This document shows, piece by piece, positions 8,001 to 29,837 of a stretch of DNA of 64,000 bases (its first letter is position 1; each line of letters starts with the position of its first letter). The stretch is from Gavia stellata (Eukaryota > Chordata > Aves > Gaviiformes > Gaviidae). Location of the stretch: the NCBI RefSeq assembly GCF_030936135.1, contig NC_082637.1, positions 10,429,001 through 10,493,000 on the forward strand, read 5' to 3'. The notes under the pieces were generated by a model. It made no database searches, was not told where the DNA came from, and worked only from the letters and a program-made list of their open reading frames with translations. The position numbers and the translations under genes are program-made.

Positions 8001-10088
8001 GGAGCAGCCAGGGCAGGCAGCAAACACACTGCTTGGGAGGTCGTTTAGTGCCTGCTTCACCCCCAGAGCGGGTTTATTCATTCACTACTCTTAGCAGTTT
8101 AAAAGCACTTTATAAAAGCAGCCAGCATGATGCCATGGTGTCCCTGGCCAAGCCTTCCCAGCACCTTGCCAGCCTGTCCCTCACTCTCCCATTCCCCCGT
8201 GTTTAATCGCATTTTAAATGCTGCCTTGAAATGTGCCCGTAGGCACTTGTTTTACAGCTGGTGGGTTCAGAGCTTTGCAGCCCAAGCAACACTTTAGCAA
8301 GAAAGTGGGTTAAAACCTGGGAGGTTGTTCGCTTCCCGCTTTCCAGCTATCCCGAAAGAGGAGAAACTTACCCTCAAGCCAAGGAAGGAGGCAAATACAG
8401 CCTAGGCTCAGCCTGAAAAGCTCCATGGTCTGCCAGCACAGGGAGGGGGAAGGAGCCCCCAAAGCCTCTTGCCCACGAGGATTGCCAAGCAGCTCACTTT
8501 TCCCCCTTCCTCTGTCATTCACAGCAGAAAAACCTGCTGGGAAGAGAAAAACTGTTTCGTCTTAGCGCTGGAGACTTGGCAGCTGGCTTATCAGCAAAGG
8601 ATCAGCTTGGAGACGAGGTCCCGCTCAGTGGTTATCCCTTAGGAGAAATCATATGACGAGCCAGGATGGGGGGGACACTGGACCGAGATGCTCACAGCCA
8701 CTGAGCTCAGCTCCTTAGCAGCAGCGGTTGCTCCCAGCAGTGAGAGCCGAATGCTAAGCAGGCTGGCGGGCTGCCTTTGCAGAGGAGGACACAGGGCTTG
8801 CCTGGCAAGGCAAAATTTGGTGGGAGTGCCCGGTGGGGCGTGGGATGTGTCTGCTGAAACCCTGCACTTGACTGTTCCATCACTGGGTCATTTTCTCTTT
8901 AGGGAGAAATATCCCTGCCGAGATGAGTTTAAGCACAGTTATAGGTCACAGCGGAGATAAAACCTCACAATCTGGCTGCAGGGATCCTGGAGCCGGAGGG
9001 TGATGGGGGGGCGAGCTGAGCTCCTGGCTGGGGACCAGGGCCCTGATGCAAGTCTGCCCTGATGCTCCTCCTGAGGGTCACTCGGGTTGAGTTTGGCTTT
9101 TCATGCACCAGTCCGGGCTCTGCACAGGTGGAAAACATCACATCCCTCCCCGAGGGATGGCAGCAGTAAAGGCTGTTGGGTGAAACAGCAGCAGGGGAAG
9201 CCAGAGATATAATTTTGCTAGTGAGGTGCTCCCATTCAGCCACATCCTCTCCGCACGTGTCTGTCCCACCTGCTTGCTGGTGTCGTTCTCACCCAGGTAT
9301 ATCATTAGCCATTTTGCATAAAAATCATGGCTTCACTTTTACTTTGGGGTTGAGTCCTGGATGGCACCAATGCCGCACCTCCCCGCTCTGCCCATGAGAC
9401 CAGGAGTCACTTCAAGAGCTGGGAGCTGCTTCGTTTAGCCGCCAAGCTGTCAAACTAAAACAGCACAGTGTCAGCATCCATGCATGGGCACGGGCTCGGG
9501 TCAGAGCCTTGCGAAGGGGCAGTTCCCTCCGTGCCCAGTCCCAGGCTGATGGCTCCCAGCTTTCCCCCTCTCAGAGTGGGGATCTGGCTTCGAACCAGAC
9601 TGGCTTCTTCCCAGGTGGATGCAGATACGGTGAGGGATATTCTACAGCCAAACAAAAGGGGAGGTTGGGGTAAGTTCTTGCCCTGGTGAGGTTGATCCTG
9701 CCTGGCTGTAGTACTGAACTCAAGAAAAATACCACAGAACTGGTTTCTTTGGGATTACTGGTTTCTTTTCCCCATGGGAACATGTCAAGTTGCACTAAAT
9801 ACCAGGCATTTTTGATTTAAAAAAGCACAGATGTTAAACTCTCCTCCGCATGACTGGGGTTGAAAATGCAAACGTTCTCTACCGCGTTCGCTGAGCAAGC
9901 GTGTCTCTCCCACAGGAGAAGGAAGAGAGGGAAGAGGTTGGGGTGGAGGTGTCTCCCTGACGGATGGAGAGCGTCACAGCAAATATCCTGGTGAAAAGGT
10001 CGCTGTGCTTTTCTGCCATGGATCCTGCTATTGCTCTGACCCTGGGAGCTGGTACACCTCCTGTTTTTCTCCTCCTGGCCCTTCCATC

Positions 10089-10204
10089 CATTTCACACAA
10101 GGGAAACTAAGGCACAGAGAGTCTGTGATCTGCCCAAAGCCATGAAGGCTGTCTCTGAGCTCCTGAATCCCAGATTTCTCCCAATCCACTGGATCGCAGT
10201 TGCT
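10089..10204 (+). mobile_element. MIR SINE fragment
   Basis: The best MIR match in the window: 'gggaaactaaggcacagaga', then 'ctgcccaaagccatgaaggctgtc', then 'gaatcccagattt' and a tail near 'ccaatccact', in the order of the MIR sense strand. It is an ancient amniote SINE with heavy divergence and no target duplication left. Confidence 0.6.
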
Positions 10205-13200
10205 TTTTAACACCCAGAAAGCCTTTCCCTTTATGTGCTAGGAAGGTGTCCTCTTCCTGCCAGGTGGGGGGCTGTCAGGGGTCTTTGTTGCAGTTTTCCT
10301 GTGGGAAGGACCATACAGGGTCAGGCTACAGGTCTGGGTCCAGCAGGGACCCACAGAGGATGCTGAGGCAAAACTAAGAAAATGGTAAGTATGTCCCCTA
10401 CTCTTCTCCTGCCATTTTCAGCTCAGGATTTCCCAGTCCCAGTGTGTTTAGCAGATCTCCTGCCTCTGTGTGATGGGCAGCTCAGCTTTTGCCCTGGGCA
10501 AGTCCCTGTCACCTCCGTGGGGACAACTATCGTGTCCTCATTCCCACCGCTTCCCTTCTTTCTGCAGATATTTAACATTGCCAGGACCTTCCCTCTTATT
10601 CTGCATCTCCTCTGTTCCTGCTGGGGCCTTTTAAACTCTGTGTAAAGCCTTTAGGAAATCCAGGTGTTTTCTTGTCCAGGGTGTGATTCCAGCTTTTCAG
10701 AGGGTATCTTCTTGCTTCAAATAAGCTCTCCCATCTGCTGTTAAGCCACATTCATTTCCTTGCCCTAAGGAAAGGAAGGAAAGGAAGAAAAAGTATCCAA
10801 CTTTTCTTCTAGAGGGCATGTGCTGGTGCTTCTTTTCCAATGTGATGTCCTGAAGCACCTCCGCTCAGCTGTCCCCTGGATCTGGTGCCATCTCCTCGAG
10901 CTGGCATCGAGGGTGATGAGGGATGCCACAGAACAGAACCCAGCTGCTCTCCTTGCTGCCCACCGCCCTGCCCTTGAGCACTGGAATAGAGGTCTGCTCC
11001 ATCCGGAGATCTGCTCCATCCAGAGATGCAGCTTAATGCTGTATCCAAAGGCAAATCCTTTTTTTCTGGCTTTGGCAATCCTTAATGAGATACAGAACAT
11101 TCAGGATGCCACCGAACCCCACCCTAGCACCGGATTGAGGAGAGCCTAACCCAGAAACCAATGCCATTTTTAAGCCCTGGAGAAAAGGGGTCAGTCTAGC
11201 ACAGACCATGTCAGCACAGACCAAAGCGGATCAGTTGCACACTGAGATTTTTAGGGTTTCAGGACACCACTTTGGCCTTGTATTTATACATGCAAGAAAG
11301 TATTTGCATATGAAATTGCTCTGTAGCCTTAGAGCCCATTCTTCCATGGCGCATTGGCTTGCTTACAGCATGGCGTAGCCTCATGCGCAGGGATGCTTTC
11401 TCCAAATTGTTTCCACAGCTTTTCCCAGGCTGCCTCTAGGAGAGAGCAAGCTACTTTCCAGCTGTGGTCTCTCCCACGTGGAGCAGGATAGTCCTGTAAT
11501 TGCTGGCACTCAGTCACGTAATTTCCATGTTGGTTAGTCCTTGCTGACCCTAGTCCCATGGAGCAGCCTTGTTCTTGGCTCCATCGTCAGTTCGATGGCT
11601 GCATTGTTTTTTCTCGTTATTTTGCAGCTCATGGTGAATTTAATCAGAGTGTAGTGATGATCAAGTGAAACTTCATCTCCTGATGGGGACATGGTATTAC
11701 CTACCACATCTTCAAACACAGGGATCACTCACTGAACACCCAAATGCCTGGGTATCGTTTGGTGTCTGGTGTGGGACAGGTACTGCTTTCCGACACACAG
11801 CAGCTGGGAGAGCAAGTGGAGACAAACATTTCGCTAGCCATCCTGTGGGACACTCGGGAACAGCACAGCCATCCGATGGGCTTTCAACACAGCCTTGGAG
11901 CCAGCCAGACTCTGTGTGACACTGGGGACATCAGCAAGTGGCTTAAAATCTGAGCTCAATCCTGTACCCTCGGTGTCACCCGAGGACAGGGATGGCAAAA
12001 CTCACACAGGGTCCCTGGGGTGAGGAGGGCTGGGGCTCTGGGGAACTCTCCAGCTCAGTATTTTAGGGATGAAATCTTACTCTCTCCGTGGGCAACCTCC
12101 TTCGAGCAAAGGTGCAAATAATCATTAGCTTTCTTTTCAGCTGTCTGGCCTTTTGCAGGTTTTTCCGTCTGGGTGCCTGGTTCAAAGTGCTTGTGAAAGG
12201 ATCAGCTTCAGCCATGCTGGGTAATTTCTGAAGTCTCTCTTGCTTATGACCAGGCTGAGTTTTGGTGGTAAGACCTCTATCACATCCCTCTGGCTGCTGG
12301 CTGGCACTAATCACAATTCATTCCTCCATCCAAATCCACTTTGAAGATGGGCTTTCATTGCCTTAAAGCTGGATAAGTGCTGAGGCAAGCTGAGGGGTCT
12401 GGCCATCGCTGGGTTGTCTCTACAGTGAAACCTTTGATCACAGAAAAGCACTTGGCATCAAATGTATGGGAAAATAACCACAGTAAAGATCCTGTATCTC
12501 CAAGAAGGGATGCAGAAGGAAAAAGAGATTTTTACATACCAAAAGTCTCCTGTGGCTGGGAAGTGGAGCTGGTTTGGGATAAAGCAGCATCTCCAGAGAT
12601 GCCTGGGTTAGATGTGGTCCTCACAGCTCTGGTCCCATGTGAGCAGCAGGCTGACACTCTGGGGAGCCCAGAGCAGATGCCCTCAGCCTGCCCTAGAGCC
12701 TCATGTCCCACTGTGGGTGCATCAGTGCTGCAAGAAGTCCCACAGGGACAGGTATGAGACAAATTGCACAGGACCCCTCACCCTGGCAGGCAGTTGGCTT
12801 AACCCATGCAGAGCTTGAAGCATCCCTCAAGGACCTTCCTGGAGCTCATGGAAGGTTTCTGGCTTATTCTCACAAGAAAATAGCAACCAAGAGTGGTTCC
12901 CATCCTAGATGAAAGCCTTCAAGCTATTGACCCTCTTTATCTCGCTGTTGTTTTAGGCAGCTCCCAAGGGCTCCCTCTCCAAGCAGAGCCTCCAACCGAG
13001 CCTGGGTCTAAGTGGGAGAAAGCCCAGCTCAGACCCAAGTCCTTCACCTGGCATGAGCCCAGCTGACTTCTTTCAGAGCAGCCTGAGATGAAAGCACCCT
13101 TTTCCCCCTCCTTTTCCTATATTTCCACTGTCCCCTAGCCTGCTCACACGATTGCAGCTGTGGCACACAACGACCATTTTTCCCCTCATCTGTGCTCTGC

Positions 13201-14649
13201 TCGGTTTGCTTCTTCATCAGGGGAGGGCACCTCAAAAACTCCCTGGAGTTCCTCACAAGCACTGATCCTGGTGCAAGAGGGACTGACGGGCTCTGGGCTG
13301 CCCAGGGGATGCTGGATGACCGGTCACCCCACAGCCCTTGGACGAGTCTGGCAGCACTCCCTGGGTTTCAGCCTGGGCCACTGGCTCAGCAGATGGAGCT
13401 CCTTCCCAAGGATGCAGGCAGAGCGGCTCTCAGCGTGCAGTGGGATGCTGTGACCACTACTTGCAGCTTGGAGCAGCACATGGATACTGTGTGCAGGCTC
13501 AGGAGTCAGAGAGAGCCCTAAAATGGGGAAAATGTTGATTTTGCAGGTTTTTTCCTGCTGACTTGGGAAGGAGGAGTTTGTTCGTGTAAGAGGATGGGAG
13601 TGGGACTTTCCACTGCTTGCTTCTGCAGCAATTAGGACTGAAAGACCTGTGCAGTAAACTCTGCTTTATTCCCAGTAGTGAGAGACTGTGATCGTCTGGG
13701 TAAGGAAAAACCCCAGGTAGCATTTCTGCTCTAGACCTGGATTGGCTCCAGGGGACTTACAGCACATCAGGCTTGCACAGGGTTACCAGCTTTGCAGCAG
13801 CACTTTGTACGGGCACAGGCCAGCAGACTCTGTGCAGCCACTTTCACGTGGAGATCAGCTAAAAACTCTCCAGGCATCAGGAGCCGTGGGGAGCTGTGCA
13901 GAGACCCGCAAATCAGTATGGCTGCCAGAAATAAGCCTGCTCAGAGCAGTCTAGTGGGTGTGAGCTGGTGCAGGTCTCTCCATGCTGCTGGTGCATCCCT
14001 GCAGGATACAGCCGGAAGCCTCCCGGCAGGTCGGACTCTGCTGCTGATGTGGGGTTAATATGAACCAAACTGCTGTTTCAGCCCAAGGACCCAGATGAGA
14101 GCCCCATGGGCCAAGGGTCGAGGTAGTGAGACCAGCTATCACTGTTGCCCTCGCTGGAGCTATCAGGAATTGCTCAAAGCCCAGAGCTGGGGTGAGGGGT
14201 GCATGCCGTGCTGTGGCTAATATCCTCCCTGCTTCTGGGCACAAGCGAGCTTTGAGGTTTTTCCAGTTCTCAGGAAGAGCAGGATCGTGCACTGTGTATG
14301 GGAGGGACGCCAGCCATGCCCAGGGACATCGGTGCCCCTACCTGCACCACATGGACTGCAGAGCGTCCTTGGCAATGTCACCTCACTCTCTGCATCCATC
14401 CCCCAGCCACTTCCCCCTTGCGTTAAGCCTTGTTGGCTTTGTAGCTAATCTGTGGCAGCTCATGAGATAACCTTGGCTCTCCCTCGCTCCCCCTCCTTGC
14501 CTGCAGCGATAGCAGATACCTCTTTTCTCACGTCATCTATACATACAGAAAAAATGGTGAGCAAACCTCCCCCGGGCCCCTTTGAGCAATAAATCCCCCA
14601 TACAATGCCTGCGTGTGCCAGGCTGCTATGGGAAATGAGAGCTGATGGG

Positions 14650-15000
14650 AACTGCTTTCTTCTTTGCGTGTGTTTTCTGTTTAAAATGTCCCATTTGAAA
14701 CAGTTTAAAAGAGCTCAGTAAATGATTAATCAGTTCTTGCAGAGTTTGACAAGGCAATACTTTGTTTATGACCATGACTTATAGCTACCTATGGCGCTTT
14801 CTGCTAGAACATGTCATATACTCTCCCTATGAGCACCTGATAGCGACTCCTAAGTGTTTGATAACCTGTTATAAAAGGAATCTTAATATAGAAAACTATC
14901 CCTTTGTTTAAAGACAGAATTGTTTCCTGATGGGTTGTTTGATGAGTGATGCTCTCCCTGTATCAGAAGGCAGGTAAATGTGTTGGAAAGGTAAAAGTCT
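14650..15000. other. AT-rich unique block, possible conserved non-coding element
   Basis: An AT-rich block inside GC-richer surroundings, with homeobox-like ('aatgattaat'), GATA-like ('tgataacc') and 'atgaccatgactta' words and no repeat or reading frame I recognise. The composition and density of such words suggest an enhancer-type element, but I see no direct proof. Confidence 0.2.
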
Positions 15001-16639
15001 GAGGATTCAGGTGTCACATAGCTGGGACCTGGACCGAGGCCTGATAAACTTGTGCCACATGTGCCAAGAGATCAGTGTGGTTGCTGGGGATAGATGTGGT
15101 CTGGAGGAGGCTCTGAGGGTAGTTGTACAAAGGGGTTTAGGCACGTAGCTGCCCTTCGAGCTGGCTGACATGCATTTCCTCACATGAAACCCTTGCTTAG
15201 CTCCTGTTTAACTCTAAGAGGGTCTAAAGTCCCAGCTCATTTTCTGCATGTCGTGGTACTGGGTATGTCAATGTTTAATCTGTGCATGCTGAGGGCTGCT
15301 TAGATCCTCAGGGTGAGGAATCCTGGCTCATTTCAGAGGGAGGCCTGGGGGACTGATGGAGCCAGACCCATACCAGATCAGCATGTGATAAACCAGCCCA
15401 AATAAAATAGAACTGTGCCTGCATCCCTGGGGCATCTGGCTTTCGGGGCATGCTGGGAGCATTCAACCCATCCTTGCTTGGAAGCAGTTGCATGTTGTGT
15501 GGGTTAATTAAGTATTCACTGGAGCAGAGAGGCTTTGCAAGGACTGGTTAAATATTCATGGGGAAGGGACGCTGTGATGCCATAACCCCATGGATGGAGC
15601 AAGGATAAGGTTGGATCTGGGCTCTGGGTGACCGACGTGCACCCCTTGGAAAGAATCCTTCTCATTCCTGAGCAGTGCTCAGGCTGCTGGCTTGGGCAGT
15701 GGATGTTTAATGCTTTCATGAGACATAAGCCTTGAAGGACAGGAGTTTGTAGCTTCAGAGGCTCCCTTACCCTGGCAGGACCTATCCCGGGAATCCCAAT
15801 TTCATCCTGCTCTGCCTCCAGATGTGCCAGCACCTGCTTTTCCCACCTACTGACCACATCCCCCAGGCAGTACCTCTCCTCCATGAAGGCCAGGGCTGGG
15901 GTACCAACACAGCATCCCGCCACATCATAGGAGGGAGGAAAACCCAAAAGGCCCTGTGGACAGGACAGCTTGGCCCAGGACCCCTGACCCCCTCGTATAC
16001 TGTCTTTCTGTCACTGATCTTCCACCCCTAAGGTAAACCGACATATTTAAAGCAATTGTCTAGGAGAGAAATCACTGCATAGAAAGTTGGGAAACTTCCC
16101 ACACGTCCTTTATTCTTGTAGGAATTTTGGAGTCCTGATGTCCCTGGGTTTTTTTAACATGTTGCTGTTTAGTATTAAAAAAAAGCAGAAGTCCTGAAAA
16201 ACTTGTTTCCCTCTTCCTTTCCCTTCCTTATATTTTCACCCTGGAAAATGGTGGGGCTCATCTTGAAGGAAAGTCCTGTCTCCAGGCTGGCTGGGAGGGC
16301 AAAAGGAAGAAGGAAGAAGAGGAGGAAAGCTCTGAGGGCGGCAACCAAGGACTGACCCAGCACAAAAAAACATCTTCAAAGTGAAGAGATTGTTTTGCAA
16401 AAACCCCAGGGTTTCACTGGAAACCACTCGAGCTGGAGCCACAAAGCCCTGTCAGGAGCTGGGCCAGCACTGGGGAGGCTGCCAGGTCTGAGCGCTTTGG
16501 GGCTGGCAGAGTGCCCCGAGCACGCGTGTAACCCAACCTGCTCCCCAAAACTGTCCCCGTCCCAGATCACCATCTCTTTGGGGCAGTGACCTTCTTTCTC
16601 TCACCCCCTACCCCAGACAGGGGTCACCCAGGATGGGTT

Positions 16640-16880
16640 TTACCCGCTTTGTCTCTTTTTCGCAGCAAAGCCTCGCTCACCCTGAGAGCGCGTTACAAAA
16701 ACTAACCGAGCGGCTCATTCAGGTGGTTGGGAGGCAGATGCGATCGATCTCAAATATGGTGACCTCTGGTATTTCTAATGGCTCCCTGGGCAGCTTATCG
16801 TCTCTGTATACTTAGATACTGATGTCATGGCAGCCTGCGTAAATACGCCCGGCATGTATTGCCGGGCACGGCTCGGATGA
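16640..16880. other. CpG-retaining unique block, possible distal regulatory element
   Basis: About 1.3 kb before the plus-strand MYORG copy. It keeps many CpGs in otherwise CpG-poor DNA ('gagcgcgttac', 'accgagcggctc', 'gcgatcgatc', 'aaatacgcccggc') and holds a 'ctgatgtcatggcag' word. No reading frame or repeat explains it. It could be a regulatory element or distant promoter of that copy; this is inference from composition. Confidence 0.25.
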
Positions 16881-16969
16881 GCAAGTTGGCTCTTTTTCCT
16901 CCTCTCCATACAGGCTGCTCCTGCAAATTTTCATCCTGTCAGATCACACAGACCCCAGGATGGGGCCAG

Positions 16970-17045
16970 GGAAGCTAGGAGCCCGGTTGCACAGAGTGAG
17001 TTGCCTCGAGCCCTCTGCCTCAGTTTCCCCCGCCTGCCGTTTTTG
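16970..17045 (-). mobile_element. MIR-like fragment
   Basis: On the minus strand it reads 'gggggaaactgaggcagagg' followed by 'ggcaactcactctgtgcaa', resembling the MIR core. Short and uncertain. Confidence 0.35.
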
Positions 17046-18150
17046 TTGGCAGCAGATGCTCTTTCAGATGCTGTGAGCTGCACTGCACCAGCTGGCTTGG
17101 TGACGCTTGATGCAGCTGCGACATGTGTCATCTTGTGCGTTTCTCAGCAAAACAAGGTTTTAATGCAGTCCTGGTCTTGCAACAACTTCAGTTTAACACC
17201 CCCATCCCCAAACTCTGTACCTAAGTATCTTCCACCTCCACTGCACTATAGCAACTTTCCTGGCATAAGCCTGGGAGTTACAGAAACTGAATTAGGATAA
17301 AAAATGGAGAAGCGGAGGCAGGGAAACATCCTACTTTTCCCCTGCTCGGGCAAGAGGGGCTGTCCCAGGGTGACGTCTCCAGGATGGGCAGTAGGGCAGG
17401 CAGCTGAAGGGCTCTGCCCAGCCGACCTGGAGCCATGCAGCGCTGGCAACAAGGCGTGTGTGTATGTACCCTCACCCCATGCAGCTCAGGGAAGGAGCGA
17501 AGTGCAGGGAGATAACACATCACTTGCCGGCTGCATCCCCGGCGCGTGGTAGGGAACAGCAGACAGAGGCTGGTCGTTTCAGCATAGCATGTGTCTGCCT
17601 GCATTTGATGCAGAGAAGTTGTGACCAGTGGTAAAATTCAGCAGGGCGTATAGCTAATGTAAAAACAGATTAGCTTGTGATGTCCACCTTGTATGCTCAG
17701 GTACCAGCCCCTTTCCCTGGCCCCATTCTCCTCCAGGCTCTGCCCTGACTTTCATCCCTTCGCCCTTGCTCTGCGGGACGCAGTGAGGCTGCAGCCAAGA
17801 GAGGGTCACGGGAATCCTGGCACAGCCCTGCTCCAAAGAAGCTCAGCCCAGCTGCCAGTGGACAGGCTGCCACTGCACAGAGCAAAGCAAGCCAGAGCTG
17901 CAGAGCCAGGGAGGCTGCTGGGCTGCAAACGGGAGGAGAGGAGCTATGACTGTTATCAAGATTTAAGTGGTGGTTTTGTGTGTTTGTAACCCTCTGTTTC
18001 ATGAAATAACACTGCACGTGTGAGTGGCCAGGCTTTGGAAAGGAGACTGTGACAGCCTTCATGCAGCATCTTGGATTTTCTGTCCACCAGTTGGAGAAAA
18101 AAAATTCAGCAGGGAAGTTTCTATCCAAGCGTTGACGCTGCGAAGGAGTC

Positions 18151-20247
18151 ATGGACAGTCTGATTACCCACCGCACAGGAAAACACAGAAACGCTCAAAA
18201 GGAGGATGTCAAAGAAGCATGTTTGCCTGAAAACGTCACGCCAGTGAAGCAGAAGCCCTCCAAGGAGCTGAGGCCCATGCTCGGGGCCATCTTGCTGGGC
18301 CTCTTCCTGTTCATTGCTGCGGTGGTGGCCTGGTGCTACTACACCATGTCCCTGCGGAAGGCGGAGCGGCTCAAGACGGAGCTGATGGACCTGCGCGCAG
18401 ACGGCTTCGTCATCCGGAACCAGCACGGGGAGGTGGTCTTCCGGCTGGCCTTCCGCTCGGGCAGCCTTGACCTGGAGTCGTGCTCCAAGGAGGGCGAGAT
18501 TTTGAGCTGCACGCGGTCGGGCGGGGGGCCGCTCAACTTCTTCATCCAGACGGTGAAGCCCAAGGACACGGTCATGTGCTACCGTGTGCGCTGGGAAGAG
18601 CTGGCGGCCGGCCCGGCAGTGGAGCACACCATGTTCTGGGAGGATGCCCACTGGTACGGGGGCTCGGAGATGAGCACCCAGCACTGGCCCATCCGCCTGG
18701 CCGGCTACCAGGAGCCCGTGCCCTACGTGACAAGCGACGTCTACTCCTTCCGCGACAGCTTTGGCGGCATCCTCGAGCGCTACTGGCTCTCCTCCAAGGC
18801 AGCGGCCATCAAGATCAACGACTCCGTGCCCTTCCACCTGGGCTTCAACGCCACTGAGCGTGCCCTCTTCTTCCAGGCCCGCTACAAGGACTCCCCCTAC
18901 AAGCCCCCACCGGGGCAGCAGCCCTTCCCCGAGCTCAGCTACCGCGTCTGCGTGGGCTCCGATGTTACCTCCATCCACAAGTACATGGTGCGCCGGTACT
19001 TCAACAAGCCCTCCAAGATCCCTGCCGAGAACGCCTTCCGATATCCCATCTGGTCCACCTGGGCGCTCTACAAGAACAATATCGACCAAGATAAAGTTCT
19101 TCATTTTGCAAGAAACATTAAGAAGTACCATTTTAACTGCAGCCACATTGAAATTGATGACATGTACACGCAAGCCTATGGGGACTTTGACTTTGACCCT
19201 GTCAAGTTCCCCAATGTGACAGAGATGTTTGCAAAACTGAGGGAGGATGGGTTTAAGGTCACCCTGTGGATTCATCCCTTCATACACACAGATTCCTTCA
19301 ATTTTGGGGTGGGGATCGAGCGTCAGCTTTTCATCAAGGAGCCATCTGGGCGGCTGCCAGCCATGGTGGAGTGGTGGAATGGCATCGGGGCCATCCTGGA
19401 CTTCACCAACCCGGCAGCCCGGGACTGGTTCCAGAGCCACCTGCGTCAGCTCCGACACAAGTACGGCATCTCGTCCTTCAAGTTCGACGCGGGTGAGACC
19501 AGCTACCTGCCCAAGCAGTTCAGCACCTTCCGCCCACTCTCGGACCCCAGCATCTGGTCACGGCGCTACACGGAGATGGCCATCCCCTTCTACGAGCTGG
19601 CTGAGGTGCGGGTGGGCTACCAGTCGCAGAACATCTCCTGCTTCTTCCGCATCATTGACCGCGACTCCGTCTGGGGCTACGAGCTTGGCCTCAAGTCCCT
19701 CATCCCCACGGTGCTCACCATCAGCATGCTGGGGTACCCTTTTGTACTGCCAGATATGATTGGAGGAAACTTCCTCCCCAACAAGACAGAGGGGGCAGTG
19801 GAGATCCCCGACCGGGAGCTGTACGTGCGGTGGCTGGAGCTGTCGGCCTTCATGCCCTCCATGCAGTTCTCCATCCCGCCCTGGCTCTATGACAAGGAGG
19901 TGGTGGAGATCGCGCAGAAGTTCACAGAGCTCCACGAGTCGCTGGTGGCCCCGCTGCTGCTGGAGCTCGCTGGGGAGGTCACCGACACGGGTGACCCCAT
20001 CATCCGTCCCATCTGGTGGATCTCGCCCCGCGACGAGGCCACGCACAGGATCGACTCCCAGTTCCTCATTGGTGACACCCTCATGGTGGCCCCCGTCCTG
20101 GAGATGGGCAAGCAGGAGCGTGACGTCTACCTGCCAGCGGGCAAGTGGCGCAGCTACAAGGGGGAGTTGTTTGAGAAGACCCCCGTGCTGCTCACGGACT
20201 ATCCTGTCGACCTGGACGAAGTTGCCTATTTCCTCTGGGTTTCCTAA
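18151..20247 (+). CDS. MYORG-like family 31 glycosidase, inverted second copy
   Basis: 698 residues in one exon, intact. By family it is a type II membrane glycosidase of GH31 acting in the ER/secretory lumen; human MYORG is reported to be an alpha-galactosidase. Residues 1-43 are a short cytosolic tail, about 44-64 the single membrane anchor ([18 protein letters not shown]), the rest lumenal. The predicted nucleophile is D446 (FKFDAGE) and the acid/base D503 (IIDRDS), both present. Lumenal N-glycosylation sequons include NDS, NAT, NCS, NVT, NIS and NKT. An in-frame TGA precedes the ATG at 18151, fixing the start unless an upstream exon joins; a possible 3' splice site lies at 18089-18090 (ctgtccaccag). 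The first 29 residues are unlike the other copy and human. From residue 30 it is almost identical to the minus-strand copy except for residues 316-327, 374-383 and 532-542. Its orientation is opposite to human MYORG, so it is the probable derived duplicate. Confidence 0.95.
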
Positions 20248-20265
20248 CAGGCTCCTCCATCAGCT
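18236..20265 (+). repeat. Left arm of inverted repeat (MYORG duplicate)
   Basis: This 2,030-bp arm pairs with 27646-29675 on the other strand without any insertion or deletion. Identity begins at 'tcacgccagtg' in the coding region and ends with 'cagct' about 18 bases past the stop codon. Flanks on both sides are unrelated. Three short diverged patches interrupt it: about 19095-19131, 19271-19299 and 19740-19774. Confidence 0.95.
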
Positions 20266-20413
20266 ATGCAATGGTCTCAGGGATTAATGAACCAATGACT
20301 TTAATGACCTGGGCAGAGTAATAGTTTTTAAAGTCAAAATACTTCAGTATGAAATTCAAAGAGAACATTGCGACCTCTGTTTTGTGTTGCATGTGCTGTA
20401 AAATAACATACTT

Positions 20414-20419
20414 ATTAAA
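20414..20419 (+). terminator. Candidate poly(A) signal, plus-strand MYORG copy
   Basis: ATTAAA lies 167 bases after the stop codon in an AT-rich stretch. It is the first good signal downstream, but no transcript evidence is available. Confidence 0.35.
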
Positions 20420-21054
20420 ATACATTAGATGGCTGTCTTTTTATTGCAGTCTAAGTAATACAACGTATAGACACACAGTCTCTGGTCGTAATCTTTTCCC
20501 AGCAAGAAATGCCATGCACGTGTCTGGTTTATATAGGAAATTACATGGACTCCTTTGTTACCCAGTTTCACAGCTGATCCCTTGAGATATTTATAATTTC
20601 ATTTACTTAGTGGAGGAGGCAGTTGCAGCAGAGTACTTTTTTTTTTTACAAAAAGCAGTCTGTGATTATCATGAAAAGGAAGGCACCCAATTTTCTGCCT
20701 GCATGTCAGATGGGTGCTGATGCAGGAACAAGGGGAGTTTCCATTTCCCATGGCCTCAGCTATCTGAGCAAGGAGAAAGAAGCTATAGCACTTGCTATCG
20801 CTGTGGCAACCGCTTCCCACCTTTTGTTGGAAGAAATTGTTGAGAACCATGTCTGTGGTGTGGATTCAGCCAAGCCTGTAAACAGGTGGTGAAATCTCAT
20901 GGCAGTCAAGGTTAAAACTTAGCACCAAGTCATGCATGGGTTAGGACCTAATAGGATCCATTTGTGTTTTGGGACCACATTTAGAGCCAAAGAGTGCAAT
21001 CCATCAGGTCCCAGGAGAGAATTCGGCCATCATCCTCCTGAGAAAACTCAGACA

Positions 21055-21105
21055 ATTAACAACCAGCCCAAGTGCCCTTCTGCCTCAGTTTCCCCATGGA
21101 AAATA
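21055..21105 (-). mobile_element. MIR-like scrap
   Basis: The minus strand reads 'atggggaaactgaggcag', the diagnostic MIR word, followed by 'aagggcacttgggc'. Very short, so it may be chance. Confidence 0.3.
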
Positions 21106-24100
21106 TTCTCTCATGCCACAGCTGTGTTGAGGGAGATCCCTGTGCATGAGCCAGCATCCTTCTGCGCATGGAGGTGACTTCTTCTGGGTGAAGGTGTCTC
21201 AGCAGCACCTGCAGGCTTGCGGTAGGCAGGCTGGCTGTGAAATGGTCTCCACTCTTGGTCCAATCTTCTCCGTTTTTAAGCAAAGAGAAGTTTAAAGGTG
21301 ACAGGACTGAGGAGTTTAGAAGAGTCCTGGGTTATCTGGGCTGCAATGCCCCTTCCCAAAGCAAGAAGGTGACCCCAGTGCACTGCTAGTAGGCACCTGG
21401 CGGGTAAAGCTGTGCATGGCCCCAAAGCAGGAGAAAGCTCCTTTCTTTAGGGGTTTGCCCCAGAGCTGGTCCATATAAAAAATAAACAGGGGCTGGAGAA
21501 CATCACACTCACTCTAGATCTGGTTTGGTGCTCAGGTGAAGCATGTTCAAAACCGTCTCAGACCCCTCATCACTCATCAGTGGGTCCGTTGTGCCACAAG
21601 CACCCTGCGTGGTCACAGTGGCATAGCAGTGCCAAGTGAGATGAGCCAGAATATCTTCTAGGTGCCCCTGAATGCAGCTCAAGCTGCAGTAATGCTATTG
21701 CTGGTGTGGCAATGGGGAGGGAAAACCCCTCCTTTAATCTTGGGATGTGAAAGGGAAAGCAATGCTCAGTCTGGCAGCGGTATTCAGGGTTAACAGACCA
21801 CCTCTAGGTCTTTACCAAGGGCTTTCTCCCACTCCAGGATAGTGGTGTCCACTGATGTATCTCCCCCGAGGATGAGAAAGTGTTTTTGAATGCTTTCTTT
21901 CTCAGTTGGTGCTTTGAAGACCCAAGGGGTCCCCGACAATTGGGCTTGGGTCAACCAGACGGTCCCAACCAAAATTCCTTTGGCTGTTTTTGCAGCAAGA
22001 AAAAAGCTTTCTGAAAAGCTGATGCCCACGGTGCTGGGGAGAGGTGGGACAGCCAGGCTCCAGACCCCTCATACTGCACCTTTGCCCCTCTAATCAGTGT
22101 GCTCTATATGCACACACACGGCTCTGCCGCCCGCCTGCATTACAGGCTGGGGGGGAAAAAAAAGCATCACCAAGACTTTCTGCTGACTCTGCGGATGATA
22201 CGAGCTGCCTGGTCCCATTTGGCTGCAGAAATCTCTCCCCCAAATCCCCATCCCTTTCCAGCTTTCCCCCAGCACCTTTCCCTGCTGCCCAGCCGAACCG
22301 CAGGGAGCCACAGGGGACTGGTGCTGGTGGCATCCTGTGAGCAGGTGGCACCGCGGCCGTCCCTCCGCACCCTCCTCCTGCGCCGGGGCTGCGCGCTGCC
22401 AGAGGGACACCTTGTTTGCCTTGCTAAGCTTCAGTCCTGGTTGTTTTCTTGGCACTCCCAGTGCGGAGCAAGAGCTGTTTTCTGGAGGTACTGGTGACAT
22501 GGGACTCTCCCCCAGCACATTGCTCATCCCAGGCTGCCTGTTTTTTTGAAAGGGAATTTATTGCCCTTAATCTTTGATGATCACTGAGCTAAAAACCACC
22601 CAGACCTACTGGCAAAGAATAATAATAAAATAAATAAAAATACCTGCTTTTCTGTACTTGGCCTCTGGGATTTTGCATCAGCCCAGGCCATCTTTATGGC
22701 TCTCCTGGAGAGAAAGGGATCTGCAGGCTGGCAGCTCCTGCCTGGCTTCGGAGAAGCTGCGAATGAGGAGGTTGTTTTTTTCCTGAGGCTGCCAGCCTGG
22801 CCACGTGCCCAAAGGGACTCTGCTGCTGTCAGCTTGTCCTTTCACCACAGTCCTCCCCAGCCTTGGGCTCTGCCTGCCTGCCTGTTGTTTTTTTCTTACT
22901 TTTAATGAAAGCTGTGATTTTGGGCAGGGGTGCACATGCTCCCAGCCAGGATCTCATGGGTCAGCAGCCACTGCTGTGCTGTCACCCATAGGCACCTCCT
23001 TGAAATCCAATTTGAAATGAATTGGGCTTTTGCTGTAGCCCCACTGGAGTTTAGGACTTTGCCATTCATTAACATTCCTCCCTGTGCCGTACACAGCCGT
23101 GGACATGTTTTCAAGCACTGCCACTAAGCTGGAACCCAGCACAGAGCAGAACCCACTCCCTGTCCCCATGTCCCCAGCAAGCCTCATACCCCCTCCCTGT
23201 ACACAGCATCAGCTTTTGGGAGGTTGCAAACCAAAACCAAACCCAAACCCAAACCCACCGATTCCAGGGCGGACTCCTGCATTATTGAGGATTTGCTGCA
23301 AGTGCTGCAAGCTGCCAACCTGCCCCCAGGTCTCCAGCCATCGCCAGCTTCACCACCCCATGCATCAGCCAAGTCTATAGATGCCACTCACACCCAAGGG
23401 AGAAGGCAAAGGAAAAGCATTGGGAAAATGTCTTTTATTGCATAGAGAGCAAATCGAAGTCCCTCTCATTGCTCAAGCCAATGTTGGTCAGTGCTAGTGA
23501 TGGTGGCACAAGGCAGGCTGTGGTTTGTACAGTAACGATGGAAAGGGCAAGAACAACATTGTGTGGAGCAAAAGGGGTGGCGTGGGGCAAGGCAGGCTCC
23601 TAAACGAGTTTCAGACACTCCATTTCTGGCACTCCCATAGCCACAAACATCTACTCCACCACTGTCCCAGCCGTCAGCGCCATCTGGAAAGGGGGACCCC
23701 GGGGCAGTGGGGACAGCCATGGCCCAGACGGACCTTCTGGAGTGCCTGAGGGAAGCCAAAAGCAGGCTGCTCTTCTTGAGTGCCTGCAAACAGTCCAGAA
23801 GCATGTGTCCTCTGAAAGCACTGTGGACCAGCCAACCCCCTGGAATCACTGTCGATGGGTCCTTTTTGGGTGGATATCAGCAGAAATAGGGGCACGACAG
23901 TCTGGTCCCCACCCCCAGGGGTAGACACATCATTGGGGTTTGCCTGGACATGGTATTCTCCAGGCCAGCCCTAAAGCACAGCTATTTCCTTTGCTGTCAG
24001 GACCCAAGGGAGGGCGATCCATGATCCAGTAGGTCATCTCCATATCCCCATCTCCTGCCACCACTGCAAACACCAGAGTGGGGTGGCTGCCAGCTCCTCT

Positions 24101-27100
24101 CTTTAAAACATACATGAAAGCTGCAAACTGCAAACTTTAAATAAACCAACAATCTCAACTCTGATTTCAGTGAAGTCTAGGGTGAAAAAAACCCCAAATC
24201 TGCCTGAACCATCAGCCCCATGTACTCAGTACAGACAGACATAGTTAAACTGCCTTTTGTTTTCCAAAATTTTTTTATCAATCAAGGCGATTCATGTTAC
24301 AGTTCTGTTTTCATAAGAATTAAGAATTAGAAAAGTGGTTAAAAACAAACCCACCAGCATTACAGTCCAATGTAGGATGGCATGTGCAAACACAAGCATC
24401 AAGAAAACCCAATAAACATCAGTGCAAGCTTCAAAATTCTATCACACAGGCATCACGTTGACCTGCTGCTCAGCCATGGTCTGCTGTGGCTGGGTGGAAA
24501 AGGCTGACTCCAACTCCCAAACATGTTTCGGGGCTTTTCCTGGTCTAAGTCAACTAAACCCTGCTTTGGCCAGTGACCCGTGGTGTACATCAGAGAAATC
24601 TCCCTAGTAGCAGTTCCCAAGGTGTCTGTGTACAAAAGTGCTTGTGGTCTGCAAGGTCCTAGAGGTCCTTGAGTCCTGCAGTGATACAGCATAGTGTTAG
24701 AAACAGTGGTTTTGGTAAAAAGTTGGATGGAAAGGGCACCTAGAAGCCTGTGAGATAGCTTGAGGCAGCACTGCTGAGCCTGTCCCCAGCATGCAGGGAA
24801 GGCTTGGTGCCGTAGATCCCCAGAGAGCCACCCATATGGACCCGCTCTTCAGCATCATCCCTTATGTCCCCCCAACAGCTTTCCTTTCTCCCAGCTGGAG
24901 CACTGAATAGCCACAGCCATTTATGGCCTAACTACAGCATTCAGAAAAATAAGGGTGCTCTGTAATCTTACCCATTATTCATATAGTTGAATAAAAAGAA
25001 AATTAAAATCTTGATAGCAAAATCCTTTCTTTTGAGGGAAGGGGAAGAAAGATGGTGTGTCTAATGGAGAATTTCCTCCATGACCTTCCTGACAATGGCT
25101 GAACCCACTGAGAAGAGATTGAAGGCACTCATCTGGCTGTTCCCATCATTTTAACTATTAAGGGATACTAACAGGAATGCTGTGTTTCTCTTCATGTAGC
25201 TTCACCCCTTATTAGTGAGGGATGTGGTGAGTGGCACGGCAGAGACAGGGGAGGAGAAGACACGCAACAACTCCTGGTCACACTAGGATCCTTCCCATGA
25301 AGTCCTGTGCCAGGAATCCCACTTCTTCACTGGCAGTTGAGCCATGTAGCAACAACTCCTCCACCCAACGACTCCCGTGCCAAGGGAGGACAAGTATTTC
25401 ACAAGCAAAGATTGAAAGGGAAGAGCTGGACCCCCTCAAAGCATGGCTTTTAAGCATTTCTAGGACTGGAGAAGCCCTCTCCGTACCCTGTCCTCCTTAC
25501 AGGCTGTGGTCAGACTCATCTCCAGGAGCTCCTCACCTTCACCTCCACCCTCCAGTCCAAGGGCCAAATCCTGCCAGTGCCCTGATGACTGACACTGGGA
25601 CTTCAGGATTAACTCCTTGCCAGAAGGTGTCTGTAACTTGTAACAAAACCACTATTTGCACTGGTGGCAGGCAACAAACCTGAGTCCTTCATGGTTAAAA
25701 GCCACAAGAAACAGGCTTTGGGAAACACTTGTGCTCCAGCTGGGCAAGGACCTATAGGGCTTCCCTGCATCTTGTATTGAGGCTGAAACACCAAATTATG
25801 CAGGGCAGATTCAGACCTCAAGGGATGCTCCAAAGAGTCCATCAAACTGGACTTCCTCATGCCCTTCCTAATTATAAAAGCACTTCAGATTTTGCCCCAA
25901 ACACCCAAATTTCTACTCCTGGACCCCATCACAACCCCCAGGTTTAGTGCATCTCCTTTTCTGCCTCCTGCAAAGCCCAGCGGCAGGAGATGGGTTTTGA
26001 GAAAGATCCTCACTGGTACCCAACCCTACCCAAAACACAGCACCATCTCCCCAGGTGGCAGACTCGTGCTGGACCCATGCTCAGCCCAGACACAATCCCA
26101 TGAGAAACCCCGCAGATGCTGAGCTCTCCTTGGCTGGTCGTAGCCTGGGCAGGGTGCCCCAAACCTTCCCAGCCAATGCTGTTCAATTCTGCAGGGGCTC
26201 ATTAAAAATTCAGGGGCTGAAACACAGTCCCAACCAGGGCAATGCTGGGAATGTCCTGCCCTGGGGAGGAAGGCTGCCAGACTTCAATCCTGTTTGCTCT
26301 GTCTTGGAGTGGAGATTGCCCCCAGCTCTCTGTAAATGCATCTTCCCATACACAACCAAATGGGAAAGCTGAGAAAGAGGTAACTCTGCAGCTCCATACG
26401 GCTGCTGGGGACTTGGGGTGCAGGACCACGTCACCCCGCATCCCCTCCAGAAGCCTCTGACAGCAACCCCACCTCCAGCACCACAAACATTGCCTGAGGA
26501 AGGCCCCAAATTCTCCCGGGAGAGAGGAGGGCTGCTTCAGAAAAACCCTCAACAAAATCATCACCTCTAACTGCGACCTGAGATGGAAATGGGTATTAGC
26601 TTAATTTCATGGTAGACGAGAACATTTCCGCGGGTGCAGTGAGAACACCCGCTGGCACAGACCCGTCAGTGCAAAAGCCAGTGTTTTCCACCCACCGGCA
26701 AGCCGGCTAGCAGCAAACGTCACCGCCAATCCAAGACACGTGCCACTCGCGGGAACCGGCTGTTCCTGGGGAAGCGCTGCACGTACTTTTTGAGAACGGC
26801 TTTGCTCCAGGCAGTCCTTCTGCCAGCAACAAACCTGCAATCTCATCTGTCCTTAAAAACCAAAAGGGATGATATCAGCAGGATAATCATGTAATTGCTT
26901 TAAAAAGACTAATGGGGTGTGCTGGTACGGACAGCGCTGCTCTAGGAAAGGCAGTGTTGACACTCAAGGCAAAATACACGGGCAAGTACCGTGCAGCGGG
27001 TGTTAAATGGGCAAGGAGGTGGGATGCAGCTGTCCCATCAAGTGATATGCAGCCCATACAGTTAAAATACCACTCGAGTGGACATCACTCGAGTAACCTG

Positions 27101-27552
27101 GCCTGCCTGGTACCGGGGAAAGCAGGAGCATGGGGCAACTGTTAGTCCAGTGCCACACTAAGCCAAAGGGGGAGAAGACATATGTGTGTATACATGTGTC
27201 CCTAGTCTGTTTTCTGCTCTTAAAAAAGTCTTTTAAAATATATTTGCCATATTACAAAACTTAAGGCAGGCTGTGCGTAAGCAACCCTCCCATGTCACAC
27301 GCCCCCATGCCCAGTGCCAGGTGCTCCCATTGGCAGTAACCAACCTCCACCTCTGGAAATCCTTCGGAACTGATAAGGTATTGGGTTTACTACATGTCTG
27401 CAGACAGACAACTCCTTCCTGACCTATACAGAGAAAATTCTGCCGACCGTAACCCAACCAGAGTCTCCTACCAGCGTCAAATTAAAAAAAAAAAAAAATC
27501 ACACGCGACCCCCCCAAATAAAAAGAAATTACCCCAAGGACAGTGAAGTCTA

Positions 27553-27558
27553 TTTAAT
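27553..27558 (-). terminator. Candidate poly(A) signal, minus-strand MYORG
   Basis: The minus strand reads ATTAAA about 105 bases after the stop codon, in AT-rich DNA. It would give a short 3' UTR. Unconfirmed. Confidence 0.35.
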
Positions 27559-27645
27559 TCCCTTCCTCAAGCCCAGTCTCAAAAGAAATGTGCAATTAGA
27601 ATTATTATTTGTTACGAAGTCCTAGGTAAGGCATAGTTATCCCAA

Positions 27646-29675
27646 AGCTGATGGAGGAGCCTGTTAGGAAACCCAGAGGAAATAGGCAACTTCGTCCAGG
27701 TCGACAGGATAGTCCGTGAGCAGCACCGGGGTCTTCTCAAACAACTCCCCCTTGTAGCTGCGCCACTTGCCCGCTGGCAGGTAGACGTCACGCTCCTGCT
27801 TGCCCATCTCCAGGACGGGGGCCACCATGAGGGTGTCACCAATGAGGAACTGGGAGTCGATCCTGTGCGTGGCCTCGTCGCGGGGCGAGATCCACCAGAT
27901 GGGACGGATGATGGGGTCACCCGTGTCGGTGACCTCCCCAGCGAGCTCCAGCAGCAGCGGGGCCACCAGCGACTCGTGGAGCTCTGTGAACTTCTGCGCG
28001 ATCTCCACCACCTCCTTGTCATAGAGCCAGGGCGGGATGGAGAACTGCATGGAGGGCATGAAGGCAGACAGCTCCAGCCACCGCACGTACAGCTCCCGGT
28101 CGGGGATCTCCACTGCCCCCTCTGTCTTGTTGGGGAAAAAATTCCCCCCGATCATGTCAGCGGATATGAAGGGGTACCCCAGCATGCTGATGGTGAGCAC
28201 CGTGGGGATGAGGGACTTGAGGCCAAGCTCGTAGCCCCAGACGGAGTCGCGGTCAATGATGCGGAAGAAGCAGGAGATGTTCTGCGACTGGTAGCCCACC
28301 CGCACCTCAGCCAGCTCGTAGAAGGGGATGGCCATTTCCGTGTAGCGCCGTGACCAGATGCTGGGGTCCGAGAGTGGGCGGAAGGTGCTGAACTGCTTGG
28401 GCAGGTAGCTGGTCTCACCCGCGTCGAACTTGAAGGACGAGATGCCGTACTTGTGTCGGAGCTGACGCAGGTGGCTCTGGAACCAGTCCCGGGCTGCCGG
28501 GTTGGTGAAGTCCAGGATGGCCCCGATGCCATTCCACCACTCCACCATGGCTGGCAGCCGCCCAGATGGCTCCTTGATGAAAAGCTGACGCTCGATCCCC
28601 ACCCCAAAATTGGAGGAGTTGTAGTTTATGAAAGGGTGAGTCCACAGGGTGACCTTAAACCCATCCTCCCTCAGTTTTGCAAACATCTCTGTCACATTGG
28701 GGAACTTGACAGGGTCAAAGTCAAAGTCCCCATAGGCTTGCGTGTACATGTCATCAATTTCAATGTGGCTGCAGTTAAAACGGTACTTCTTGATCTTTTC
28801 GGCAAATCGCAAGAGTTTATCTTGGTCGATATTGTTCTTGTAGAGTGCCCAGGTGGACCAGATGGGATATCGGAAGGCGTTCTCGGCAGGGATCTTGGAG
28901 GGCTTGTTGAAGTACCGGCGCACCATGTACTTGTGGATGGAGGTGACATCGGAGCCCACGCAGACCCGGTAGCTGAGCTCGGGGAAGGGCTGCTGCCCCG
29001 GTGGGGGCTTGTAGGGGGAGTCCTTGTAGCGGGCCTGGAAGAAGAGGGCACGCTCAGTGGCGTTGAAGCCCAGGTGGAAGGGCACGGAGTCGTTGATCTT
29101 GATGGCCGCTGCCTTGGAGGAGAGCCAGTAGCGCTCGAGGATGCCGCCAAAGCTGTCGCGGAAGGAGTAGACGTCGCTCGTCACGTAGGGCACGGGCTCC
29201 TGGTAGCCGGCCAGGCGGATGGGCCAGTGCTGGGTGCTCATCTCCGAGCCCCCGTACCAGTGGGCATCCTCCCAGAACATGGTGTGCTCCACTGCCGGGC
29301 CGGCCGCCAGCTCTTCCCAGCGCACACGGTAGCACATGACCGTGTCCTTGGGCTTCACCGTCTGGATGAAGAAGTTGAGCGGCCCCCCGCCCGACCGCGT
29401 GCAGCTCAAAATCTCGCCCTCCTTGGAGCACGACTCCAGGTCGAGGCTGCCCGAGCGGAAGGCCAGCCGGAAGACCACCTCCCCGTGCTGGTTCCGGATG
29501 ACGAAGCCGTCTGCGCGCAGGTCCATCAGCTCCGTCTTGAGCCGCTCCGCCTTCCGCAGGGACATGGTGTAGTAGCACCAGGCCACCACCGCAGCAATGA
29601 ACAGGAAGAGGCCCAGCAAGATGGCCCCGAGCATGGGCCTCAGCTCCTTGGAGGGCTTCTGCTTCACTGGCGTGA
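27646..29675 (-). repeat. Right arm of inverted repeat (MYORG)
   Basis: The partner of 18236-20265, equal in length at 2,030 bp. Outside the three patches I counted 8 differences between the arms, all at silent codon positions; inside them 37 differences in about 101 bases. Confidence 0.95.
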
Positions 29676-29700
29676 AGTTCTCGGGCAGGAAGGTGTACAT
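27664..29700 (-). CDS. MYORG: MYORG, myogenesis-regulating glycosidase (GH31)
   Basis: 678 residues in one coding exon, intact, against about 714 in human, whose extra residues are mostly before the matching MYTFLP start. A type II ER membrane protein: cytosolic tail 1-23, anchor about 24-44 ([18 protein letters not shown]), then the lumenal GH31 barrel. Predicted nucleophile D426 (FKFDAGE) and acid/base D483 (IIDRDS) are present, as is the conserved WSTWALY...DQDK block. An in-frame TAG upstream supports the ATG at 29700. A good 3' splice site (long pyrimidine tract, then CAG at 29838-29840) lies 137 bases before it, so the gene probably has a non-coding first exon. Strand and position next to SPMIP6 match human MYORG, so this is the positional orthologue. 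It keeps the human-like [12 protein letters not shown] loop with an NSS sequon, but carries ISADMIGGN where human has ILPDMVGGN. Confidence 0.97.
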
Positions 29701-29837
29701 GGTGCTCTGTTTTCTCTAGCGCTTTTTGCAGAGGAGTGGGAAGGAAGATCTCTTTGCAGCAAGTCCGGGGTTCTCAGAAGGAGACCACGGACTGTTAGGA
29801 GAGTTCCCACCTCCACCGAGTCCTGGAGCACCTGTCT
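29701..29837 (-). other. MYORG: 5' UTR part of the MYORG coding exon
   Basis: Bounded upstream by 'ctcttctttttcag' on the minus strand, a textbook 3' splice site with the AG at 29838-29839. No in-frame extension of the protein is possible because a TAG lies just before the start codon. Confidence 0.6.

What the first reader, a model, noticed from the sequence alone, without database searches (positions are those of the whole stretch)
19095..19774. Three islands of very high divergence that escaped homogenisation
Between the arms, 12 differences fall in about 19095-19131, 10 in 19271-19299 and 15 in 19740-19774, about 37% against 0.4% elsewhere. They hold 14 of the 15 amino-acid differences in the roughly 668 shared residues (316-327, 374-383 and 532-542 in the plus copy). 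The 139 bases between the first two islands are identical. Conversion tracts this tightly interrupted suggest selection against converting these sites, or later import of the patches from a third copy.
Basis: seen in the sequence. Interest (0 to 1): 0.9.

Follow-up and report, generated by a model that had tools for sequence, protein, structure and literature searches.

The report
Twin MYORG genes with preserved differences
Two facing copies of an ER sugar-cutting enzyme gene on what looks like a bird Z chromosome are nearly identical, probably because they keep copying each other, except in three tiny protein segments that stayed very different, which suggests that evolution protects a functional difference exactly there.

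Summary
In detail: the 2,045-base inverted arms carry 49 differences, 37 of them in three islands of 35, 28 and 35 bases. Island synonymous sites are saturated (pS 0.84), whereas the rest, from codon 30 on, has dS 0.019 and no amino-acid change: the islands are old divergence, not a recent burst. Recognisable homology stops just outside the coding frame. This fits an old tail-to-tail MYORG duplication whose coding exon is kept alike by gene conversion. In the 1.32 Gb assembly the coding DNA matches only these two loci, and the four island sequences that got an answer are each unique, so import from a surviving third copy is not supported. Simulations with protected island cores reproduce the pattern in 10-60 of 100 runs; plain neutral conversion kept an island in 0 of 120, and a heterology barrier matched in 1 of 900. 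Island 1 lies in barrel helix 1; island 2 removes the dimer-contact tyrosine and the N398 glycan site from the plus copy; island 3 holds the DMIGGN loop. Selection is the favoured, unproven cause. Known kind (opsins, bird TLR2), attractive new member.

The parts
18151..20247 (+). Plus copy: MYORG-like GH31 gene, 698 aa, coding sequence in one open frame
   Evidence: ORF; Pfam Glyco_hydro_31 TIM barrel and C-terminal domain; best solved match MYORG 7qqf, 1165 bits; 0 nonsynonymous against 8 synonymous differences outside islands from codon 30 on
27664..29700 (-). Minus copy: MYORG, 678 aa, taken as the gene in the ancestral position
   Evidence: ORF; 1166 bits to 7qqf; same strand as the neighbouring SMRP1 gene; the ancestral order MYORG-SPMIP6 is recalled, not tested
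18224..20268 (+). Plus arm of the inverted repeat (codon 25 to 21 bases past the stop)
   Evidence: the same edges in a word-size-7 blastn of 10001-27000 against 27001-38000, inverted orientation
27643..29687 (-). Minus arm of the inverted repeat
19096..19130 (+). Island 1 in the plus copy: codons 316-327, 12 differences, 5 amino-acid changes; solved-MYORG residues 333-344 (helix alpha1 is 330-342)
   Evidence: helix limits from a passage of PMC9491548
28781..28815 (-). Island 1 in the minus copy
19271..19298 (+). Island 2 in the plus copy: codons 374-383, 10 differences, 5 amino-acid changes; residues 391-400; plus lacks Y397 and the N398-S-S sequon
   Evidence: dimer and glycan facts from PMC9491548
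28613..28640 (-). Island 2 in the minus copy: Y397 and N398-S-S kept
19740..19774 (+). Island 3 in the plus copy: codons 530-542, 15 differences, 4 amino-acid changes; residues 547-559; contains LPDMIGGN
28137..28171 (-). Island 3 in the minus copy: contains SADMIGGN, without the proline that the plus copy, solved MYORG, five bacterial proteins and the C17 relative have
18211..18237 (+). 5' edge of the arm: plus codons 21-29; codons 25-29 differ at 4 of 15 bases, codons 21-24 at 8 of 12; no difference in codons 30-39
   Evidence: codon table
19131..19270 (+). 140 identical bases between islands 1 and 2

Best explanation
On a bird Z chromosome the ER alpha-galactosidase gene MYORG exists as an old, tail-to-tail inverted pair 7.4 kb apart. 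Recurrent interlocus gene conversion (short tracts) keeps the coding exon of the two copies nearly identical. Three segments of 28-35 bases are exempt: whenever a conversion carried them across, the resulting allele was selected against, because the two proteins differ usefully there. The segments are barrel helix alpha1, the start of the dimer insert with its contact tyrosine and the N398 glycan site, and the stretch with the DMIGGN loop (after barrel strand 7 by my reading of the barrel order, not measured). Shown: the mosaic, its extreme clustering, synonymous saturation of the islands, lack of amino-acid change elsewhere, sharp homology edges, no third copy found in this assembly. Inferred: age, recurrence, short tracts, selection as the keeper. 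Most likely functional meaning (inferred, weakest step): the plus protein no longer makes the same dimer or carries the same interface glycan, so the copies avoid pairing with each other and/or differ in what they act on.
For: Islands saturated (pS 0.84, pN 0.22; 22 synonymous sites) against dS 0.019 and dN 0 elsewhere from codon 30 on. 0 nonsynonymous of 8 such differences, p 7e-6 under neutrality. Recognisable homology ends just past the coding frame on both sides; the 5' edge codons 25-29 differ at 4 of 15 bases before identity starts. Only two loci match the coding DNA in the assembly. GC3 in islands 0.40 (plus, Fisher p 1e-12) and 0.69 (minus, p 3e-4) against 0.91 in the far remainder of both copies, as if the rest but not the islands had long been under GC-biased conversion. 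5 of the 6 island edges are amino-acid-changing differences (table). Protected-core simulations match in 10, 27, 30, 60, 40 and 14 of 100 runs in six settings. Plus lacks one of the six MYORG sequons, N398 near the dimer interface, and contact Tyr397.
Against: Island dN/dS is not above 1; the islands look like ordinary old divergence under constraint, so selection for difference is inferred from their survival. If the whole island is protected, simulated islands come out too wide (match 2 of 300 runs over five tract lengths). Asking also for zero differences in the 140 bases between islands 1 and 2 cuts the core model to 8, 5, 4, 31, 9 and 1 of 100. 5 of 6 edges nonsynonymous has p about 0.11 by hand if each kind is equally likely. 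Both copies are less like solved MYORG in the islands than elsewhere (19/35 and 21/35 against 459/597), so these segments may simply evolve fast. Codons 307-404 outside the islands also have low GC3 (0.63) though converted. No other species or individual was available. No structure could be modelled.
Confidence: 0.62

Rival explanations
1. Neutral escape: old duplicates under gene conversion, in which clusters of substitutions became too divergent for heteroduplex to form or spread, so the islands persist without selection.
For: Divergent patches do form in simulations if tracts stop at dense mismatches: 3 or more islands in 0, 9, 47, 10, 8 and 50 of 60 runs in six settings and in 42, 5 and 36 of 300 in three. 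The islands lie in segments that differ more from solved MYORG in both copies. Island dN/dS is below 1.
Against: Such islands grow wide (95-124 bp on average, against 143 masked bp for all three observed); only 1 of 900 runs gave three or more islands, at most 160 masked bp and background at most 1%. Stopping at 3 mismatches in 20 bp lets nearly the whole gene escape, and at 4 it leaves 652-838 masked bp on average; those settings were not scored on the joint criterion. Few settings were tried.
Confidence: 0.23
2. Recent duplication, followed by import of three short patches from a divergent third MYORG-like gene.
For: Patches are sharply bounded and synonymously saturated, as a foreign insert would be.
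Against: No third copy found in the assembly by coding DNA or by four island patterns; the C17 relative is equally distant from both versions (23 and 24 of 45). Recognisable homology breaks off at the coding frame, which a recent segmental duplication does not explain. Three imports of about 30 bases from 37% divergent DNA are mechanistically hard (recalled principle).
Confidence: 0.05
3. A single recent burst of conversion between long-diverged paralogs left three unconverted or mismatch-restored remnants by chance.
For: Differences outside the islands are few and spread over the segments (5, 0, 1 and 2 in 858, 138, 438 and 468 bases), so one age for all converted parts is possible.
Against: Conversion over 2 kb between genes about 63% identical would lack the homology that recombination needs (recalled principle). 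Lower GC3 in the islands than in the far remainder, in both copies, points to long-standing exclusion.
Confidence: 0.07
4. Assembly artefact.
For: Inverted repeats 98% alike are hard to assemble; read data were not available.
Against: Both copies lie on one 89.5 Mb contig between unlike flanks; both frames are open through the islands and keep GH31 motifs; four island sequences are unique in the assembly.
Confidence: 0.03

Closest known systems
[quoted passage not shown]
   Same: Neighbouring duplicates kept alike by conversion, with a peak of divergence around functional amino-acid differences, read as selection restricting conversion (PMC3924837, passages)
   Different: One peak in one exon with a known function; here three peaks of 28-35 bases, function unknown, inverted orientation
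Avian TLR2A/TLR2B and TLR1A/TLR1B
   Same: Bird duplicates with the coding sequence in a single exon, homogenised by conversion except a divergent region (PMC3125219, passages)
   Different: One large unconverted region per pair (centre of TLR2, N-terminal half of TLR1); here three tiny islands inside otherwise converted sequence
GOT1p1/GOT1p2 of the copepod Tigriopus californicus
   Same: Mosaic of high and low divergence in the face of conversion, described as islands of divergence that can point to selection (PMC3728101, abstract and one results section)
   Different: Seen across four populations there; another enzyme; peak widths not compared
MYORG (GH31 alpha-galactosidase; PDB 7qqf, 7qqg, 7qqh)
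   Same: Both copies align over the whole solved luminal domain; ten reported catalytic and sugar-contact residues lie outside the islands and are conserved (read by eye)
   Different: One MYORG gene in mammals (recalled); here two, and the plus copy lacks Tyr397 and the N398 glycan site while the minus copy lacks Pro551

Membership tests
MYORG, GH31 alpha-galactosidase | GH31 barrel and C-terminal domain | tested here: met
   Pfam PF01055 and PF21365 above cut-off in both copies
MYORG, GH31 alpha-galactosidase | Catalytic D463/D520 and substrate residues D213, W321, D353, D354, W426, K461, R504, R517 | tested here: met
   Residue list from PMC9491548 read by eye on the alignments; all ten conserved in both copies, none in an island
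MYORG, GH31 alpha-galactosidase | Six N-glycosylation sites including N398 (a reported property, not a definition) | tested here: not met
   Minus copy keeps all six; plus copy keeps five, N398 lost. Concerns the plus copy only
MYORG, GH31 alpha-galactosidase | Homodimer through the insert region, with Y397-E407 contact | not testable with these tools
   Y397 present in minus, Thr in plus; dimerisation needs an experiment
MYORG, GH31 alpha-galactosidase | Activity on Gal-alpha1,4-Glc | not testable with these tools
   Needs purified protein
Duplicates with selection-protected peaks under gene conversion | Paralogs nearly identical at synonymous sites outside peaks, very divergent inside | tested here: met
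   dS 0.019 against pS 0.84
Duplicates with selection-protected peaks under gene conversion | Duplication older than the last conversion | tested here: met
   Recognisable homology ends at the coding frame; divergent 5' edge
Duplicates with selection-protected peaks under gene conversion | Same peaks kept in several species, paralogs closer than orthologs elsewhere | not testable with these tools
   No other bird genome held; the tool reports no relatives
Duplicates with selection-protected peaks under gene conversion | Peak residues carry a functional difference | not testable with these tools
   Only positional evidence
Sex-chromosome palindrome with arm-to-arm conversion | Inverted arms on a sex chromosome, homogenised including non-coding sequence (definition recalled) | tested here: not met
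   Contig C44 carries three DM domains within 100 kb, read as the Z-linked DMRT cluster (recalled); but homology is confined to the coding exon

The most novel reading that the evidence does not exclude
The islands are a partner and glycan code: an amniote-old second MYORG lineage survives in birds almost entirely overwritten by MYORG sequence, keeping only the minimal residues (helix alpha1, the Y397/N398 dimer edge, the DMIGGN-loop stretch) that stop it from pairing with its twin or that give it another substrate, so that gene conversion has in effect mapped the functional difference to about 14 residues. The plus copy's Asp at position 398 and Pro at 551 agree with 4 of 5 and 5 of 5 bacterial relatives, while the minus copy shares Y397/N398-S-S with solved MYORG, which would fit a split before birds and mammals parted.
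Probability: 0.22. Interest if true: 0.7.

Novelty: new member of a known kind. Interest (0 to 1): 0.5.

Why it matters
If selection keeps the islands, conversion has done a natural fine-mapping experiment: of about 670 shared residues, 14 suffice to keep two enzymes distinct. MYORG is a human brain-calcification gene for whose preferred sugar no natural glycan is known in humans (PMC9491548); a bird with two versions differing at the dimer edge, one glycan site, a helix and a loop gives a ready test of what those parts do. For genome evolution it would be an unusually sharp case, with protected segments of about 30 bases and 140 identical bases between two of them, that constrains conversion tract lengths.

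Tried and rejected
Third-copy donor: searched in the assembly by plus coding DNA, plus protein, GH31 family and four of the six island sequences. The one extra protein match, on C17, was fetched and compared and rejected as donor; it resembles a SITS-binding-protein gene (name recalled). Only its island-3 counterpart was found and compared; counterparts of islands 1 and 2 were not located. One search listed 44 GH31 matches on C4, C7, C11, C18, C22 and C44; the genes on contigs other than C44 were not examined. The minus island-1 pattern was never sent, the minus island-2 pattern did not complete, and the protein search with the minus copy did not complete.

Retrocopy: judged unlikely, since no UTR homology is seen and each copy has an acceptor-like CAG ahead of its coding frame (sequence printed; splice sites read by eye, not tested).

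Recent rapid adaptation in the islands: rejected, because synonymous sites are saturated. Caveat: islands were delimited by their own differences, so their divergence is biased upward, and only 22 synonymous sites are involved. The 'rest' starts at codon 30, so the three differences in codons 26-29 and the one past the stop were left out of it.

Simulations are toy models: neutral bases, fixed divergence 0.5%, 200 turnover times, few settings. In the protected-core runs the island positions were given, so only shape and background were tested, and exactly three islands were asked for, against three or more in the barrier runs. The zero-difference condition on the 140 bases was not scored for the barrier runs.

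Bacterial relatives: 2 loci of 10 candidate stretches, giving three proteins, plus the solved 8j53 and 8j50 proteins shown.

Papers: PMC9491548 abstract, passages and two sections; PMC3125219 passages; PMC3728101 abstract and one section; PMC3924837 passages; PMC8570371 and PMC10342144 passages. Searches seen as listings only: 2 papers; 15 of 2,465 listed, none of those titles on this gene; 20 of 110; 10 of 29; 'MYORG' and 'avian', 3 papers; 10 of 18. No paper of the held library has both 'MYORG' and 'gene conversion'.

Full report
What is there. The window lies on contig C44 (89.5 Mb) of a 1.32 Gb assembly. C44 carries three DM-domain matches within 100 kb near 30.2 Mb; from recalled knowledge that is the DMRT1-3-2 cluster of the avian Z, so the contig is taken as a bird Z chromosome. 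Two genes face each other tail to tail: 18151-20247 (+, 698 aa) and 27664-29700 (-, 678 aa). Both are GH31 proteins whose best solved relative is MYORG, an ER alpha-galactosidase (7qqf; 1166 bits for minus, 1165 for plus). The minus copy shares its strand with an SMRP1 gene at 40.6-43.4 kb (three Pfam matches); MYORG next to SPMIP6 on one strand is the recalled human order, so the minus copy is taken as the gene in the old place.

The observation. The arms differ at 49 of 2,045 aligned positions; 37 fall in three islands of 35, 28 and 35 bases. Random placement never put more than 9 differences in 40 bases in 5,000 trials, against 15 observed. Fourteen of 15 amino-acid differences are in the islands; the other is at the 5' edge.

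The islands are old. Nei-Gojobori counts give pS 0.84 and pN 0.22 over 35 island codons, against 8 synonymous and 0 nonsynonymous differences over the remaining 634 codons from codon 30 on. Rapid amino-acid change alone would not saturate synonymous sites. Zero nonsynonymous of eight has p 7e-6 without constraint, so I infer that both copies have been working genes since they were last made alike.

The duplication is old and the likeness is by conversion. A word-size-7 search of 10001-27000 against 27001-38000 in inverted orientation finds, beyond the arms, only chance-like matches of at most 26 bases; the arms end 21 bases past the stop. At the 5' edge plus codons 25-29 differ at 4 of 15 bases and codons 21-24 at 8 of 12, while codons 30-39 show none. 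A recent duplication would have carried flanks along.

No donor found. The plus coding sequence as DNA hits only the two arms in the assembly. Three plus islands and minus island 3 are each found once with up to 3 mismatches allowed. The protein search adds one weak match on C17, part of a multi-exon relative whose island-3 counterpart matches 23 of 45 bases of the plus and 24 of 45 of the minus version. Other GH31 genes exist (44 family matches on six contigs, C44 included) and were not compared.

Why the islands survive. Under plain neutral conversion with the observed background, 0 of 120 runs kept any island. If tracts stop at dense mismatches, islands arise but are wide: 1 of 900 runs had at least three islands, at most 160 masked bases and background at most 1%; the observed values are 3, 143 and 0.42%. 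If conversions touching a core of about 15 or 23 bases in each island are rejected, 10, 27, 30, 60, 40 and 14 of 100 runs match in the six settings; with the whole island as core, 2 of 300 match over five tract lengths. The protected-core model has trouble with the 140 identical bases unless tracts are short: both conditions together in 8, 5, 4, 31, 9 and 1 of 100. Five of six island edges are amino-acid-changing differences, suggestive only. GC3 is 0.40 and 0.69 in plus and minus islands against 0.91 in the far remainder of each copy, consistent with long exclusion from GC-biased conversion; but the converted stretch around islands 1 and 2 (codons 307-404) also has low GC3 (0.63) in both copies, which I do not explain.

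What lies there. Solved-structure number = plus codon + 17 in the barrel (anchored on K461, D463, Y397 and N398). Island 1 is 333-344; helix alpha1 is 330-342. Island 2 is 391-400, running into the insert 393-436 to which the dimer contact is confined; Y397 bonds E407 and N398 carries a glycan near the interface. The plus copy has Thr and Asp there and keeps five of six MYORG sequons; the minus copy keeps all six. Island 3 is 547-559 and contains the DMIGGN loop (placed after barrel strand 7 by recalled GH31 order); the plus copy keeps Leu-Pro before the Asp as solved MYORG does, the minus copy has Ser-Ala. The proline is present in 5 of 5 distinct bacterial relatives aligned and in the C17 relative. 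At residue 398, 4 of 5 bacterial relatives have Asp like the plus copy. Of 14 differing residues, solved MYORG agrees with plus at 4, minus at 6 and neither at 4, so neither copy is simply ancestral. None of the ten reported catalytic or sugar-contact residues is in an island.

Verdict. The mosaic is real, old and best explained by gene conversion with selection guarding three short segments. The kind is known: opsin exon 5, bird TLR2A/B, copepod GOT1. This is a sharp new member, in a gene where the guarded segments point to dimer and glycan differences. Selection itself and the functional meaning remain to be tested.

Noticed in passing
window 29698-29718 (-): The minus gene's first Met, with an in-frame TAG six codons ahead, corresponds by offset (no gap assumed in residues 1-45) to residue 35 of MYORG numbering. 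M35V and M35K are linked to brain calcification, how being called unknown (PMC9491548). M35 may be the true start codon; no paper of the library holds 'MYORG', 'M35' and 'start codon' together.
   Followed up: partly
window 40634-43420 (-): Exons of SMRP1/SPMIP6 (C9orf24; gene names recalled): three Pfam SMRP1 matches in profile order.
   Followed up: yes
window 19069-19362 and minus counterpart: Codons 307-404 outside the islands have GC3 0.63 in both copies against 0.91 elsewhere, including the 140 identical bases between islands.
   Followed up: partly
L030, L031 (C17:846000-865999): Multi-exon MYORG-like gene, probably SITS-binding protein (name recalled), 30-65% identical in pieces; the residue aligned with the GH31 acid/base is Pro (read by eye).
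   Followed up: partly
window 4150-5140 and 35435-36183 (-): Open frames resembling CR1 retrotransposon reverse transcriptase remains (recalled from their translation; two of them gave no Pfam match).
   Followed up: no
window 18121-19458 (-) and 28453-29841 (+): Antisense open frames of 445 and 462 codons over the two genes, a likely by-product of GC-rich third positions.
   Followed up: no
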